DNA from: a virus
Strand: one strand, 5' to 3'
DNA length: 64,000 bases
Virus record (IMG/VR): IMGVR_UViG_3300021168_000494
Location: 1-64,000 of that record
The translations under genes were made by a program, and so were the position numbers. The notes below the pieces were generated by a model, which was not told where the DNA came from, ran no database searches, and worked only from the letters and a program-made list of their open reading frames with translations. Positions 3,142 to 39,861 of the stretch are shown in pieces (the stretch's first letter is position 1; every line of letters starts with the position of its first letter).

Positions 3142-3336
3142 GTGCACGCCTTAGAGATCATCAACGAGACGCAGAGATTTGTGCAAACCAAAGCCCCAAA
3201 CTATTTCTTTCCGCAGTGGGTCGCTGAAGCTGTGGGGTGCTCATACGCAGAAGCCTTCCTAGCATTGATCGTTTTGGAGCAATGGAAAAAAGTCGGACGG
3301 CGTAGAGATGGACGCTGGTTTTTGGTGGTATCGTAG
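3142..3336 (+). CDS. small winged-helix-like hypothetical protein
   Basis: A 64-residue protein from a GTG preceded by a strong GGGGGGAAA site. The sequence suggests helices (QWVAEAVGCSYAEAFLALIVLEQW) followed by a basic strand pair (RRRDGRWFLVV), which would fit a small winged helix-turn-helix. I cannot name a family. It lies between the papain-like gene and the ParB-methyltransferase gene in the same direction. Confidence 0.55.
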   Translation: MHALEIINETQRFVQTKAPNYFFPQWVAEAVGCSYAEAFLALIVLEQWKKVGRRRDGRWFLVVS

Positions 3337-3367
3337 GCGAGCACAGCAGGACCAACATCGGGGGAAT

Positions 3368-4831
3368 ATGAAGAAGCCGAAACCGCTTGAGAAAATCTCC
3401 GATTTAAAACCGGACCGAACTAATGCCAACAGGGGTACGGACAGAGGGCGAAAGATGGTTGCGGAATCTCTGGCCAAGTACGGCGCCGGTCGGTCGGTGC
3501 TCGTGGATCGCAACGGCCACATCATCGCTGGCAACAAGACCGTGGTGGCGGCCGGCGAACGCGAAATACAGGTCGTGCAATCCGATGGGAAGAAGCTCGT
3601 CGTCGTTCAGCGCACCGACCTTGAGATGAATTCAAAGGAAGCGCGCGAGTTGGCGATCGCCGATAATCGCGCAGCGGAGGTCGGACTCGACTGGGATATC
3701 GACGTCCTCAAATCCCTCGACGTGAATCTGCCGGCATTCTGGACAGAAGCGGAACTGCGGAAGCTGATCGGTGAAGACGCACCGCTCGAGGGACCCGACG
3801 CCAGGATGGATGAGGCCGAGGCCCTGCGGATCAAATGGCAAACCGCGCCAAACCAGCTTTGGTTCATCCCACCGGATCACACGCTTTACTGCGGCGATGC
3901 TGCGAAGTTCGATGACTGGAAATTAGTGTTCGGTGATCGGCGTGCGGAGATGTGCTTCACAGACCCACCGTGGAACGTGGGCATCGGCCAGGACAGTAAC
4001 CCACAGCATCGCCAACGCGCTGGCCTTCGCAATGACCGTCTACCGGCCGAAGATTTCCAGGTGATGATCAATTCCGCAGTGGACCAGATCCAAAAATTCA
4101 GCAAGGGCGACGTCTATCTCGTGCTTGGAGCCAGCGAATGGCCCATGCTCGACGGAGTGATGCGCGGCCACGGATTTCACTGGTCGTCGACGATTATTTG
4201 GGTCAAGGATTCCTTCGTGATCGGGCGCAGCAAATATCACCAGCGATACGAGCCTGTGTGGTATGGCTGGCATACGAAAGGCAAAAGCACTTTCTGCGGT
4301 CTAAGGAACCTTGATAATGTGTGGGAAATCCCACGACCGAAAGCATCCGAGCAACACCCCACGATCAAACCCCTCGAGCTCGTCGCGCGCGCCATCAAGA
4401 ACTCCTCCGCACCTGGCGACCTCGTCTGCGATCCATTCCTCGGCGCCGGCAGTACGATGGTCGCAGCCCACTCCCTTCAGCGCACCTGCTACGGTATCGA
4501 GATAGAACCAAAGTACGTCGCCGTCACCCTTGAACGCCTTTCTGAAATGGGCCTTAGTCCCAAGCTGGTCGGCACTGGCCCCGAATTGGTGAAACATGCC
4601 CAAGAATCGCTCCAAGCCGCGCAAACCCCGCAAGCCTCGGGGAAATCCCCCACCCGCTCCACAAAGCCCCGCACAGGCCCAGGAAAGCCCAAATCCGGCC
4701 AATCCCGTGGCAACAGGGGAGAAAACACGCGTAGTGTTGCCCACGGGCCAGGTAATGAGCCCGGAGTTCCTCGCGCAGCAGTGGAAACCGGGGCAAAGCG
4801 GAAATCCGAACGGGCGGCCGCGGAAGATTAG
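3368..4831 (+). CDS. ParB/Srx-domain DNA methyltransferase fusion
   Basis: This 487-residue protein starts at an ATG after GGGGGA. Residues ~1-130 form a ParB/sulfiredoxin-like domain (ISDLKPDRTNANRGTDRG, GAGRSVLVDRNGHIIAGN, ELAIADNRAAE). Residues ~150-400 form an N6/N4 methyltransferase with FTDPPWNVG and the SAM motif VCDPFLGAGSTMVAAH. ParB-methyltransferase fusions are common in phages; the ParB part may hydrolyse nucleotides or contact DNA. It lacks the helix-turn-helix that binds parS. The last ~78 residues are a Ser/Pro/Lys-rich tail that overlaps the next gene in another frame, so this tail may be poorly conserved. Confidence 0.88.
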   Translation: MKKPKPLEKISDLKPDRTNANRGTDRGRKMVAESLAKYGAGRSVLVDRNGHIIAGNKTVVAAGEREIQVVQSDGKKLVVVQRTDLEMNSKEARELAIADNRAAEVGLDWDIDVLKSLDVNLPAFWTEAELRKLIGEDAPLEGPDARMDEAEALRIKWQTAPNQLWFIPPDHTLYCGDAAKFDDWKLVFGDRRAEMCFTDPPWNVGIGQDSNPQHRQRAGLRNDRLPAEDFQVMINSAVDQIQKFSKGDVYLVLGASEWPMLDGVMRGHGFHWSSTIIWVKDSFVIGRSKYHQRYEPVWYGWHTKGKSTFCGLRNLDNVWEIPRPKASEQHPTIKPLELVARAIKNSSAPGDLVCDPFLGAGSTMVAAHSLQRTCYGIEIEPKYVAVTLERLSEMGLSPKLVGTGPELVKHAQESLQAAQTPQASGKSPTRSTKPRTGPGKPKSGQSRGNRGENTRSVAHGPGNEPGVPRAAVETGAKRKSERAAAED

Positions 4832-21190: not shown

Positions 21191-21229
21191 AATCCCCGGG
21201 CGCGCACTTCCACGGTGCCCGGGGATTTT
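21191..21229 (+). terminator. rho-independent terminator
   Basis: A perfect 11-bp stem AATCCCCGGGC (21191-21201) with GCCCGGGGATT (21217-21227), a 15-base loop and a TTTT run. It ends transcription of the decoration gene and isolates the tRNA-like element and capsid gene that follow. Confidence 0.8.
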
Positions 21230-21236
21230 CCAGTTT

Positions 21237-21409
21237 GCTCCGGTAGCTCAGTGGTGCAGAGTCCGGTCACATGCGTCCCGCTTCGGCTGGCTGCAACGGC
21301 GATCAGACTCCGCTAGAGCACCTCGTATTTAACGAGGGGGTCGTGGCGGGTCGCCACCGCGCGCAGGGTCGCAAGGCTCGGCGAGGTTCAAAACCCACCC
21401 GGAGCGCCA
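21237..21409 (+). tRNA. tRNA-like gene (Lys-UUU-like) carrying two internal insertions
   Basis: The acceptor strands GCTCCGG (21237-21243) and CCGGAGC (21399-21405) pair perfectly, followed by G and an encoded CCA. D-stem GCTC/GAGC, anticodon stem CCTCG/CGAGG and T-stem GTGGG/CCCAC with loop TTCAAAA are all perfect, but only if ~58 nt in the D-loop (about 21256-21313) and ~39 nt in the T-stem (about 21347-21385) are left out. The remainder is exactly 76 nt. The anticodon loop TATTTAA gives anticodon TTT but has A where U33 is expected. The first insert is closed by GCAGAGTC/GACTCCGC; in the second region GTGGCG-GGT-CGCCAC can sequester the T-stem strand. Confidence 0.6.
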
Positions 21410-21414
21410 TTTCT

Positions 21415-21454
21415 CCGCTAATTTTATCAGCCCACGAACTGATAAAATTAGCGG
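21415..21454. repeat. perfect 16-bp inverted repeat
   Basis: CCGCTAATTTTATCAG (21415-21430) and its exact complement (21439-21454) flank an 8-base loop CCCACGAA. It begins five bases after the CCA of the tRNA-like gene and has no T-run on the plus strand. It could stabilise the 3' end of the RNA, bind a protein or serve as a recombination site. It is AT-rich compared with its surroundings. Confidence 0.9.
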
Positions 21455-21455
21455 A

Positions 21456-21471
21456 CGTTCCACGTGGAACG
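21456..21471. promoter_or_regulatory. parS-like palindrome, copy 1
   Basis: CGTTCCACGTGGAACG is a perfect 16-bp palindrome whose inner 14 bases GTTCCACGTGGAAC match the chromosomal parS consensus, notably the Pseudomonas form TGTTCCACGTGGAACA. ParB/Spo0J proteins bind such sites. No ParB with a helix-turn-helix is encoded in the window. An identical 14-mer occurs at 38716. Confidence 0.65.
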
Positions 21472-21492
21472 CTCCCTCAATTCAAAAAAACT

Positions 21493-21521: not shown

Positions 21522-21688
21522 CACTCTCAACAGAGCGCACCCTGCGAGCGGGATAAACTAGACGCCACTCTGCATTGTTCCAAAGCACATCGGGGGATCG
21601 ACAAATCTGCGTGCTTGACTGCGCGTGGATCGCCAACGTGCTCGTGCGGGGAGACGGCCACTGTTGAGCCAATGCAGAGGTTCCCACT

Positions 21689-37009: not shown

Positions 37010-39861
37010 AGAAGGATCCTGAATTCACGATCGAGGACGACGACCAGCAAAAGCCGGCCGCTGGTGGATCTGACTTCTCCGTTGGAGATGATGAGACTGC
37101 TGCGCCCGAAGCGAAACCGGAAACTTTTCTCGACCGCGAGGCTGCGGGAAAGAACACGACTTGGGACAGGATCAAACACGGCCTGAATCCCCTCAGTTTT
37201 CTCACCGACACGAGCGAGGGTCTCGGAAAGATCGGGGATATCGCACAGAAAAAATCCGATGCAGCGCATGAAGCAGATATCCAAGCCACTGGCCGTGGAG
37301 AGAAGCCGCGTGGGACTCTCGGGTCGATCTTTAATCCATCGCAGGGTTATGATCTCGCGGCGCGAACTGCGCGGATGGCTTCTGGATTGACAGAGCCGAA
37401 GAATGTCGCCATAGGTGCTGGCGCGATTGCGGCTCCTGAAATCGTTGGGCCGGCTCTCGTCGCTCACGGTCTCAGCACTGCGGCTCCGATTGTTTCGAAG
37501 TACGCCTCGAATGTAAGCAAGGAGGATCTCGGTGGCGGCCTTTCACCTGAAGAAGCAGAAGAGGGACTGGGTGGCCTTGCCGAAGCGGCTGGCGGTGGTG
37601 CTGCGATCGGAGAAATCGGCGCGCGCGGTGGCCTCGGGAAAACGGCGACTGCGAAAGCTGGCGGTGCTGCTCTTGATGCTCTTGGGAATCCGTTGGGCCT
37701 GGGTCTCGAGGGACACGAACTCCTGACGAAGGGCGTGGGACCGCGTGCGCGCGCGACGGGATGGCAGGACGCGATCCAAAGTCCGGGCGTGCAGCGCGCA
37801 ATTCTGGAACAGCACGCACAAACTCCAATCACCGGCCTTGAAGATTTCAAAGACGCGATTCCACAGATGAAGGAAAAACTGTGGGATGAAAAAGTTCAGC
37901 CGGCACTCGATCGTCAGGGGCCGCGGCCCGTCGACATGAAGCCGGCCGCTAAAGCTGTCCGCGATGCGATAACTCCCGAGATGCGGCAATTTGACGAGGC
38001 TGGCGTGAAGACCTTAGAAAGTCTCGCGGACAAACTCGAGCGGTCGCGGACCGTCGCCGAGGCGAGCGATCTTCAGAAATACGCGAACGCGCAAGTCGAG
38101 AGTTACTTCAACAAGTATCCGACTGCGCGGCGATCCGCACTCGCAGCCAACCCGGACACGCTTGGATGGGAAACTGCGCGGCGCGCGATCCGCGAACAAC
38201 TGAACGACACGCTCGAACATGCAGGCGAAACGGAAACGGCCGAGGCCCGTAAGGATTACGGGCACATGACGACTCTCGAAAAGGAACTCGAGAAAAAGGT
38301 GAACGTCAATGATCGAAAGGCACCGACAGGCCTTTACAATTTCCTCGGCACTGCTGGTGGCCTAGCATCGCTTCTGGCCGGCCACGGAGTGATGGCTGCG
38401 GGTCTCTATGGCCTCGGGAAAGTTGCCGAACACTTCAACAAGCCGGATGTGATGATTCGCCGCGGGATCGAGAACCTCAAACCACCCGAGGCTCCTGCGT
38501 TCACGGCTCCAGCGCCTTTCGTTCCTCCGCAGTACGCAGAGCCGGCAAATCCGGCCCGGGCCGCCTTGCCAGCGCCAGCTGTGCCAGCAGGATACGACGC
38601 AGGACCATCCGGTCCGGTCCGGGGTGGCCGCTGGACCACGCCAGCAGGGTTGCTGCCTGAATCTGTGCCTCCAATTGGTGGACCTAAAGGACTTCTGCCC
38701 GGGATCGGCGAACTTGTTCCACGTGGAACGCCCCTCCCGGAGCCCGGAGCGGCCGAACTGGCCCACCCGGAGATGTTCCCGAAGGAGCCGATTGGGGCCG
38801 AGGCGCAGCCACAGACGTATCGTCGGCCCAAAGGGCGGCCAGGGGCCGGCCAGATGGCCCGTGGCTACACAGGGGAGGCCAAGCCGCGCGTAGTGGGCTG
38901 GACGGCCGATGGAGGGCCAATCTACGAGAAAACCCCCGGCCAGGCGGCTAAACCCCCGGAAACCGCCCCTGTGGGCGAAGGTGGGGGCGTTAAGCCGATG
39001 GTGCCTCCTGCCCGAGAAGTCGGGATCCAACCGCTCGGAAAAGGCTTCGAATTGGGCAAGGGCGAGGACCTCGGCGAGGGTCTCGGTACGCAGCATGAGA
39101 TTACGAAGAACGGGGAGCGAGTGGGCAGCATAACCGTTGAGCCGCGGGGCGATGGTGTGCTACACGTTCACTGGCTCGGTGGCGACCTTGGGGCCGACGC
39201 GATCCGTGGGCCGCTACTGGATGCGCTGAAGCAGGAATACCCGGAGACGACAAAGCTGACCTACGATCGCCGGCGCCTTGCGAAGGGCGCGAATGCGGCG
39301 ACGACCGAACCTCGGGAAATGAATCTCGGGGAAATCGGTGCAGAGCACGCGCCCACGGGATCGGTGTGGGAAGGGCTTTCGCAGGACGTGAAGGACGCAT
39401 TCGACAAAGAGAAACTTGGCCCAGTGAAAAAGACTGGGATGGAAGACCTCCAGGTTGGCGACACGTTCGTTGACCACGAAGGCGAGCCACGACGGGTAAT
39501 GGAGATCACCGAGGACGGGAAAATTCACACGGCAGACGGTACCGAAGTTACCTACGACGGGGACATCGAGCACTTGGGCGAAATCAACTCGCCTCGCGCG
39601 CAACTTGCGCGTGGTGGAAAGTTCATTCCGAAAGAAAAGCCAACTGCCAAGGCTTCTGAGGAAGTGAAAAAGGCGATTGAGGGCACAGACCTAGAATTTC
39701 GCGGACGTGACGAAATGGGGATCAATCATCTTCACGACCCGCAGACTCAAACGACACTAGCGGTTTACGACAAAGACCTCGACAACGCGAAGATTAAAGA
39801 ACGCCTCGAAGCGAAGCGTGATGAATTCTGGAAGACACCGCAAGAAGAAGAGACCCATTAA
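36994..39861 (+). CDS. large ejection-type internal virion protein, 955 aa
   Basis: GTG start overlapping the previous gene by 16 bases. An acidic N-terminus precedes hydrophobic Gly/Ala segments (NVAIGAGAIAAPEIVGPALV, GTAGGLASLLAGHGVMAAGL) that may insert in membranes. A helical domain (DFKDAIPQMKEKLWDEKVQP) follows, then a long Pro-rich stretch (residues ~500-690) and a C-terminal domain (GVLHVHWLGGDLGADAIRGP). This resembles large podoviral ejection proteins. A parS-like palindrome lies within its Pro-rich coding part at 38715. Confidence 0.6.
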   Translation: MAAAVKKDPEFTIEDDDQQKPAAGGSDFSVGDDETAAPEAKPETFLDREAAGKNTTWDRIKHGLNPLSFLTDTSEGLGKIGDIAQKKSDAAHEADIQATGRGEKPRGTLGSIFNPSQGYDLAARTARMASGLTEPKNVAIGAGAIAAPEIVGPALVAHGLSTAAPIVSKYASNVSKEDLGGGLSPEEAEEGLGGLAEAAGGGAAIGEIGARGGLGKTATAKAGGAALDALGNPLGLGLEGHELLTKGVGPRARATGWQDAIQSPGVQRAILEQHAQTPITGLEDFKDAIPQMKEKLWDEKVQPALDRQGPRPVDMKPAAKAVRDAITPEMRQFDEAGVKTLESLADKLERSRTVAEASDLQKYANAQVESYFNKYPTARRSALAANPDTLGWETARRAIREQLNDTLEHAGETETAEARKDYGHMTTLEKELEKKVNVNDRKAPTGLYNFLGTAGGLASLLAGHGVMAAGLYGLGKVAEHFNKPDVMIRRGIENLKPPEAPAFTAPAPFVPPQYAEPANPARAALPAPAVPAGYDAGPSGPVRGGRWTTPAGLLPESVPPIGGPKGLLPGIGELVPRGTPLPEPGAAELAHPEMFPKEPIGAEAQPQTYRRPKGRPGAGQMARGYTGEAKPRVVGWTADGGPIYEKTPGQAAKPPETAPVGEGGGVKPMVPPAREVGIQPLGKGFELGKGEDLGEGLGTQHEITKNGERVGSITVEPRGDGVLHVHWLGGDLGADAIRGPLLDALKQEYPETTKLTYDRRRLAKGANAATTEPREMNLGEIGAEHAPTGSVWEGLSQDVKDAFDKEKLGPVKKTGMEDLQVGDTFVDHEGEPRRVMEITEDGKIHTADGTEVTYDGDIEHLGEINSPRAQLARGGKFIPKEKPTAKASEEVKKAIEGTDLEFRGRDEMGINHLHDPQTQTTLAVYDKDLDNAKIKERLEAKRDEFWKTPQEEETH
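38715..38730. promoter_or_regulatory. parS-like palindrome, copy 2
   Basis: TGTTCCACGTGGAACG contains the same 14-bp palindrome as at 21457. It agrees with 15 of 16 positions of the Pseudomonas parS form TGTTCCACGTGGAACA. It lies inside the coding sequence, read as ELVPRGTP, in a low-complexity proline-rich region where DNA sequence is less constrained by protein function. Confidence 0.6.

What the first reader, a model, noticed from the sequence alone, without database searches (positions are those of the whole stretch)
21237..21409. A tRNA-like gene that is a perfect 76-nt cloverleaf only after removing two internal segments
All four helices (acceptor 7 bp, D 4 bp, anticodon 5 bp, T 5 bp), the D-loop GG, the TTC-A T-loop, the discriminator base and an encoded CCA are present without a mismatch. 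They are interrupted by ~58 nt in the D-loop and ~39 nt inside the T-stem, and the remainder is exactly 76 nt. Bacterial tRNA introns are normally group I or II introns at the anticodon and far longer. The anticodon loop TATTTAA reads Lys-UUU but has A for U33, which tRNA-Lys-targeting anticodon nucleases might sense. Possibilities: a spliced tRNA, an inserted remnant, or a structured RNA that borrows the tRNA ends (stability, CCA, RNase P recognition). A local hairpin that sequesters the T-stem strand suggests an alternative fold.
Basis: partly seen in the sequence, partly recalled or inferred. Interest (0 to 1): 0.88.

Follow-up and report, generated by a model that had tools for sequence, protein, structure and literature searches.

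The report
Phage tRNA-like RNA with elbow hairpins
Just upstream of its capsid gene, this phage carries a tRNA-shaped RNA gene with two extra hairpins grafted near the bend of the tRNA; a sister phage keeps the tRNA frame but not a usable anticodon, so it is most likely a tRNA mimic rather than an intron-containing tRNA, and unrelated phages hold similar genes that ARAGORN misses.

Summary
At 21237-21409 every tRNA helix, the D-loop GG, the T-loop and an encoded CCA are present, interrupted by about 60 nt in the D-loop and 39 nt inside the T-stem. ARAGORN finds nothing in the full sequence but calls tRNA-Lys(UUU) once the inserts are cut out.

A sister phage (L001, MCP 96% identical) carries the same 173-nt element at the same place. 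There the tRNA core is nearly unchanged (2 of 48 sites; about 13 expected from the capsid gene's four-fold sites). The inserts drift at that rate but keep hairpins, with four double compensatory changes. The anticodon loop is not kept: A33 here, only 6 nt in L001. A spliced decoding tRNA is therefore unlikely; a non-decoding tRNA-like RNA fits best.

It is not alone. A Pseudomonas phage family (PAE2, prophage-plasmids) has a 124-nt tRNA-like RNA with a 49-nt D-loop hairpin, an invariant loop lacking U33, and seven compensatory pairs. Several other phages have otherwise normal tRNAs with a D-loop hairpin. No transcript, processing or function is shown. Decoy against tRNA-targeting enzymes is only a hypothesis.

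The parts
21237..21243 (+). acceptor stem, 5' strand GCTCCGG
   Evidence: pairs perfectly with 21399-21405; identical in L001
21246..21249 (+). D-stem 5' strand GCTC, followed by A14 G15 T G18 G19
   Evidence: pairs with 21316-21319; identical in L001
21255..21314 (+). D-loop insert, about 60 nt, long hairpin starting right after G18 G19
   Evidence: 8-bp basal stem plus apical hairpin; double compensatory changes at pairs 24-73, 41-54, 44-51 against L001, two mismatches in the window copy
21316..21319 (+). D-stem 3' strand GAGC
21321..21337 (+). anticodon arm CCTCG-TATTTAA-CGAGG (UUU anticodon position, A at position 33)
   Evidence: in L001 CTCGG-TAATAA-CCGAG, 6-nt loop
21343..21346 (+). T-stem 5' strand, GTGG before the insert
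21347..21385 (+). T-stem insert, 39 nt, two hairpins (GCGG/CCGC, which also uses the last G of GTGG; and CGC..GCG capped by a GCAA tetraloop)
   Evidence: second hairpin kept in L001 with several pair changes, one double (132-141), one mismatch in the window copy
21386..21398 (+). G53, T-loop TTCAAAA, T-stem 3' strand CCCAC
   Evidence: one difference in L001 (last base of the T-loop)
21399..21409 (+). acceptor 3' strand, discriminator G, encoded CCA
   Evidence: discriminator is T in L001
21192..21229 (+). terminator-like hairpin ATCCCCGGGC/GCCCGGGGAT + TTTT just upstream; absent in L001
21689..23026 (+). gene following the element, presumed major capsid protein (445 aa), used as the anchor for comparison
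   Evidence: 31 related viral loci; no PHROG match, so 'MCP' rests on position after terminase, portal-like and scaffold-like genes (inference)

Best explanation
A phage-encoded, tRNA-derived, non-decoding structured RNA. The gene keeps what tRNA-handling proteins read (acceptor stem, D/T elbow, T-loop, CCA) but carries two extra hairpins that leave the molecule near its elbow, and its anticodon loop is free to change. Inferred steps: it is transcribed with the structural operon (in L001 it starts about 12 nt after the upstream stop codon), its 5' end is made by the host RNase P, the encoded CCA gives a tRNA-like 3' end, and the unspliced 173-nt RNA is stable. Inferred and least certain: it then works as a tRNA mimic that occupies a tRNA-binding enzyme, for example a tRNA-targeting defence nuclease. 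Shown: anatomy, conservation pattern and recurrence in unrelated phages. Not shown: transcription, processing, partner, function.
For: Same element at the same place in sister phage L001. tRNA core 2/48 differences against 13.3 expected at the MCP four-fold rate of 0.277, P about 3e-5; inserts 26/100, at that rate. Inserts keep hairpins with 4 double changes; under a random-substitution null based on the L001 fold, double changes P about 0.015. Anticodon stem rebuilt with other bases while the loop goes from 7 to 6 nt and lacks U33. The covariance model built on the pair also finds ordinary tRNAs at the same site in relative L022, with both inserts deleted, which fits a tRNA ancestry. An unrelated Pseudomonas family has the same design: D-loop hairpin after GG, anticodon loop CCCTTAA without U33, all 29 drawn pairs kept with 7 double changes, 1-72 mismatch kept; L218 has a third such loop, CCCTTAA, with a D-loop insert.
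Against: Only two sequences of this exact element exist in the collections searched. Retention of pairs alone is not significant (29/36 kept, P 0.15) and the double changes only weakly so; the window copy folds little better than shuffles. Four-fold sites of a capsid gene are an imperfect neutral yardstick. No promoter was recognised, a terminator-like hairpin lies just upstream in the window, and no expression data exist. D-loop hairpins are compatible with normal anticodons in other phage tRNAs, so the insert alone does not exclude decoding.
Confidence: 0.52

Rival explanations
1. A former tRNA gene (perhaps a suppressor like those in L022) that picked up insertions and is decaying; the inserts have no function.
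For: Inserts drift at the four-fold rate; anticodon loop is not preserved; ordinary suppressor tRNAs lie at the same site in L022; only 2 of the 28 records checked carry the element.
Against: The core is far more conserved than the four-fold yardstick (P about 3e-5); identical insert positions and near-equal lengths after about 28% four-fold divergence; double compensatory changes.
Confidence: 0.17
2. An unspliced, still decoding tRNA: the ribosome tolerates hairpins at the elbow and the element reads AAA (Lys).
For: D-loop-hairpin tRNAs with normal anticodon loops exist in other phages (Asn GUU in L265, Glu UUC in L269 and L274, Ala UGC in L273, Arg CCU in L264); in L274 it is the only Glu-UUC tRNA beside 29 conventional ones found by ARAGORN.
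Against: No U33 in the window copy; 6-nt loop without a Lys anticodon and a changed discriminator in L001; T-stem interrupted, which none of the decoding examples show.
Confidence: 0.12
3. A tRNA with two short introns (D-loop and T-stem) removed by an unknown splicing activity.
For: Removal of both segments gives a cloverleaf that ARAGORN calls tRNA-Lys; archaeal tRNAs do have introns at such places (general knowledge).
Against: The L001 product would have a 6-nt anticodon loop; no tRNA splicing endonuclease or RtcB in either phage record; no bulge-helix-bulge seen by eye; inserts far too short for self-splicing introns.
Confidence: 0.07
4. A processing mark in the late transcript: the tRNA shape recruits RNase P to cut the polycistronic mRNA upstream of the capsid gene, and the excised RNA itself does nothing.
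For: Position between two structural genes; in L001 it starts about 12 nt after a stop codon; conserved acceptor, T-loop and CCA are what RNase P reads (general knowledge).
Against: A promoter-like motif and a conserved leader RNA already separate it from the capsid gene; does not explain the two structured inserts; most relatives lack it.
Confidence: 0.08
5. An attachment site: host tRNA sequence carried for integration.
For: Phage integration sites often lie in tRNA genes (general knowledge).
Against: No tyrosine integrase or resolvase/serine recombinase family match in either record; both halves of the tRNA, not only the 3' end, are conserved.
Confidence: 0.02

Closest known systems
Phage-encoded tRNAs (RF00005), including tRNA-Lys variants that escape anticodon nucleases (T5 tRNA-Lys against PARIS; PMC11455837, PMC10264068)
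   Same: cloverleaf ends, CCA, phage origin, Lys-like anticodon position with an altered loop in the window copy
   Different: two extra hairpins, interrupted T-stem, no U33, anticodon loop not conserved in the sister phage; [quoted passage not shown]
Archaeal tRNAs with noncanonical introns (general knowledge)
   Same: extra segments in D- and T-arms of an otherwise complete tRNA
   Different: no splicing endonuclease found, no bulge-helix-bulge seen, and the 'spliced' product would not decode in L001
Group I or II introns in bacterial tRNA genes (general knowledge)
   Same: interrupted tRNA gene
   Different: inserts of 39 and about 60 nt, outside the anticodon loop, no Rfam match
Viral and cellular tRNA-like structures (general knowledge)
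   Same: use tRNA shape and CCA-type 3' end without decoding
   Different: here a near-complete cloverleaf in a dsDNA phage, with hairpins added near the elbow

Membership tests
tRNA | 7-bp acceptor, D-, anticodon and T-stems, GG in D-loop, TTCRA T-loop, CCA | tested here: met
   with the T-stem interrupted by 39 nt
tRNA | recognised by tRNA models as it stands | tested here: not met
   ARAGORN 0 genes; no RF00005 match; ARAGORN calls it only after the inserts are removed
tRNA | 7-nt anticodon loop with U33 | tested here: not met
   A33 in the window copy; 6-nt loop in L001
tRNA | aminoacylated and used in translation | not testable with these tools
   needs RNA from infected cells
tRNA with noncanonical introns (archaeal type) | bulge-helix-bulge at the exon-intron borders | tested here: inconclusive
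   not seen by eye in the folds; no dedicated model was run
tRNA with noncanonical introns (archaeal type) | splicing endonuclease and ligase available | tested here: inconclusive
   absent from both phage records, host unknown
phage anticodon-nuclease-resistant tRNA | altered anticodon loop in a functional tRNA-Lys | tested here: inconclusive
   altered Lys-like loop in the window copy, but not Lys in L001
prophage attachment site | integrase encoded | tested here: not met
   no match to PF00589 or PF00239 in either record

The most novel reading that the evidence does not exclude
Phages carry an unrecognised class of tRNA mimics: complete tRNA frames with hairpins added near the elbow and an anticodon loop disabled at base 33, made as stable RNAs that bind and distract a host tRNA-handling enzyme (for instance a tRNA-cleaving defence nuclease). 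The window element and the Pseudomonas PAE2 family would be two independent examples.
Probability: 0.25. Interest if true: 0.85.

Novelty: new variant of a known kind. Interest (0 to 1): 0.6.

Why it matters
ARAGORN misses these genes and RF00005 misses the intact window element, so phage tRNA counts are likely incomplete. The class splits into otherwise normal tRNAs with a D-loop hairpin, which ask how the ribosome and EF-Tu tolerate it, and non-decoding mimics, which may be counter-defence RNAs. The Pseudomonas family sits in a described phage (PAE2) and in P. aeruginosa prophage-plasmids, so the question can be tested now.

Tried and rejected
Pattern CACATGCG..TGCAACGG in viral contigs: 119 stretches, only the L001 contig genuine. 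Pattern from the T-insert in viral and genome contigs: only the L001 contig plus chance matches, including one in Methylocella tundrae. Exact 3' pattern: only the L001 contig. BLAST of the element in phages and plasmids: no homologue. The D-loop-insert pattern with AGTNGG found only broken 5' tRNA pieces next to normal tRNAs. The D-loop-insert pattern in 398 genomes of the phylum of the Methylocella record: none, so no bacterial counterpart was seen there. One search used a wrong offset and was redone. Literature searches for D-loop-insert phage tRNAs found nothing relevant. The PARIS and anticodon-nuclease papers concern anticodon-loop changes; the one checked for it does not mention the D-loop, insertions or U33.

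Full report
Observation. The sequence at 21237-21409 is as described. ARAGORN finds no tRNA in the window and Rfam gives no tRNA match at gathering score or in a lax local search. With the two segments cut out ARAGORN calls tRNA-Lys(ttt), 75 nt with my cut. A permissive search for an acceptor, D-stem, anticodon arm and T-loop with free spacing finds one site in the window and one in 60 dinucleotide shuffles.

Conservation. The MCP-like protein that follows brought in 31 viral loci. One, L001, has the same 173-nt element at the same position. A covariance model of the pair finds in the window and the 31 loci these two copies, plus two ordinary tRNAs with a CTA anticodon in L022, matched with both inserts deleted and lying at the same place upstream of the same gene; the remaining matches are weak, two of them the reverse strand of the same hairpins. 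Whole records of the relatives gave no further copy. MCP nucleotide identity is 91%, four-fold sites 72%. Against that yardstick the tRNA core changes too little (2/48, P about 3e-5) while the inserts change freely (26/100).

Structure of the inserts. Aligned pairs show four double compensatory changes and several one-sided ones, with three mismatches in the window copy (pairs 22-75, 43-52, 129-144). L001 folds much better than shuffles (z -4.8), the window copy only slightly (z -1.7) (inserts alone). A null model with random substitutions gives P 0.15 for retained pairs and 0.015 for double changes. I take this as moderate, not decisive, support for conserved hairpins. The D-loop insert starts right after G18 G19 and the T insert sits at the loop end of the T-stem; from general knowledge of tRNA structure both would leave the molecule at the outer elbow, so they need not disturb the two ends.

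Decoding. The window loop is TATTTAA (A33). L001 keeps a 5-bp stem built of other bases but has a 6-nt loop, TAATAA, and its discriminator differs (G to T). With the inserts removed ARAGORN calls L001 a tRNA of undefined type. This argues against both a spliced and an unspliced decoding tRNA. No tRNA splicing endonuclease, RtcB, tyrosine integrase or resolvase family was found in either record.

Recurrence. A pattern for long D-loop inserts led to L239, then by BLAST to Pseudomonas phage PAE2, to two P. aeruginosa plasmid records and to L253 and L254. This 124-125-nt element has a 49-nt D-loop hairpin, a normal T-arm, an invariant CCCTTAA loop (Lys-CUU with C33) and an invariant T1-C72 mismatch; between PAE2 and L239 all 29 drawn pairs are kept, seven by double changes spread over acceptor, anticodon, T-arm and insert. 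In L254 it is followed by a terminator-like hairpin and T-run. L218 has a third, different element with the same CCCTTAA loop. A further pattern found otherwise normal tRNAs with a D-loop hairpin and U33: Asn GUU (L265), Glu UUC (L269, L274), Ala UGC (L273), Arg CCU (L264). In L274 it is the only Glu-UUC tRNA beside 29 conventional tRNAs found by ARAGORN. The same scanner finds none in shuffled loci. The pattern is absent from 398 bacterial genomes. So D-loop hairpins recur in phage tRNAs, and at least two lineages combine them with an anticodon loop that lacks U33.

Mechanism. The best reading is a non-decoding tRNA-like RNA that keeps tRNA ends for processing and stability; the decoy role is inference by analogy with phage tRNA-Lys variants that counter tRNA-cleaving defences (PMC11455837, PMC10264068). 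In the window a terminator-like hairpin precedes the element (21192-21229) and no promoter was recognised, so how it is transcribed is open; in L001 no terminator was found and the element follows the upstream stop codon by about 12 nt.

Limits. Two sequences of the exact element, no host, no RNA data, and a host-dependent splicing route cannot be excluded.

Noticed in passing
window 21567-21686; same place in L001-L022 and L030: Conserved structured leader RNA directly upstream of the MCP-like gene, motifs TTGA, CGCCAACGT, CGTTGAGC; 14 consensus pairs, 8 with changes on both sides in 17 sequences; no Rfam match. Preceded by a promoter-like TTGACA-17-TACTTT. Probably a new phage capsid leader RNA.
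   Followed up: partly
L021 6313-6938 and L022 6304-6959: MCP gene interrupted at about residue 102-104 by roughly 625-655 nt holding a LAGLIDADG-like ORF (GYMAALLDGEGSL), intron-like; no Rfam intron match at gathering score.
   Followed up: partly
L022 5515-5590 and 5655-5729: Two tRNA genes with CTA anticodon (amber suppressors; ARAGORN labels them tRNA-Pyl) at the place where the window has the tRNA-like element.
   Followed up: partly
L013 5604-5741, minus strand: tRNA-Leu-like gene with a very long anticodon arm, upstream of the MCP-like gene in a related phage; RF00005 37.6 bits.
   Followed up: partly
window 21456-21471 and 38716-38729: Two exact GTTCCACGTGGAAC palindromes, parS-like from general knowledge; similar sites in L025, L028, L030. 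The window also has a ParB-like/methyltransferase fusion gene at 3308-4828.
   Followed up: partly
window 21414-21455: Perfect 17-bp hairpin right after the tRNA-like element, absent in L001; fold z-score -8.3 for the stretch 21400-21480.
   Followed up: no
L271 840-944 of the reverse complement: tRNA-like chimera that seems to hold two anticodon arms; two CTA-anticodon tRNAs on the same small locus.
   Followed up: no
L226 1231-1338: tRNA-like gene with an extended anticodon arm.
   Followed up: no
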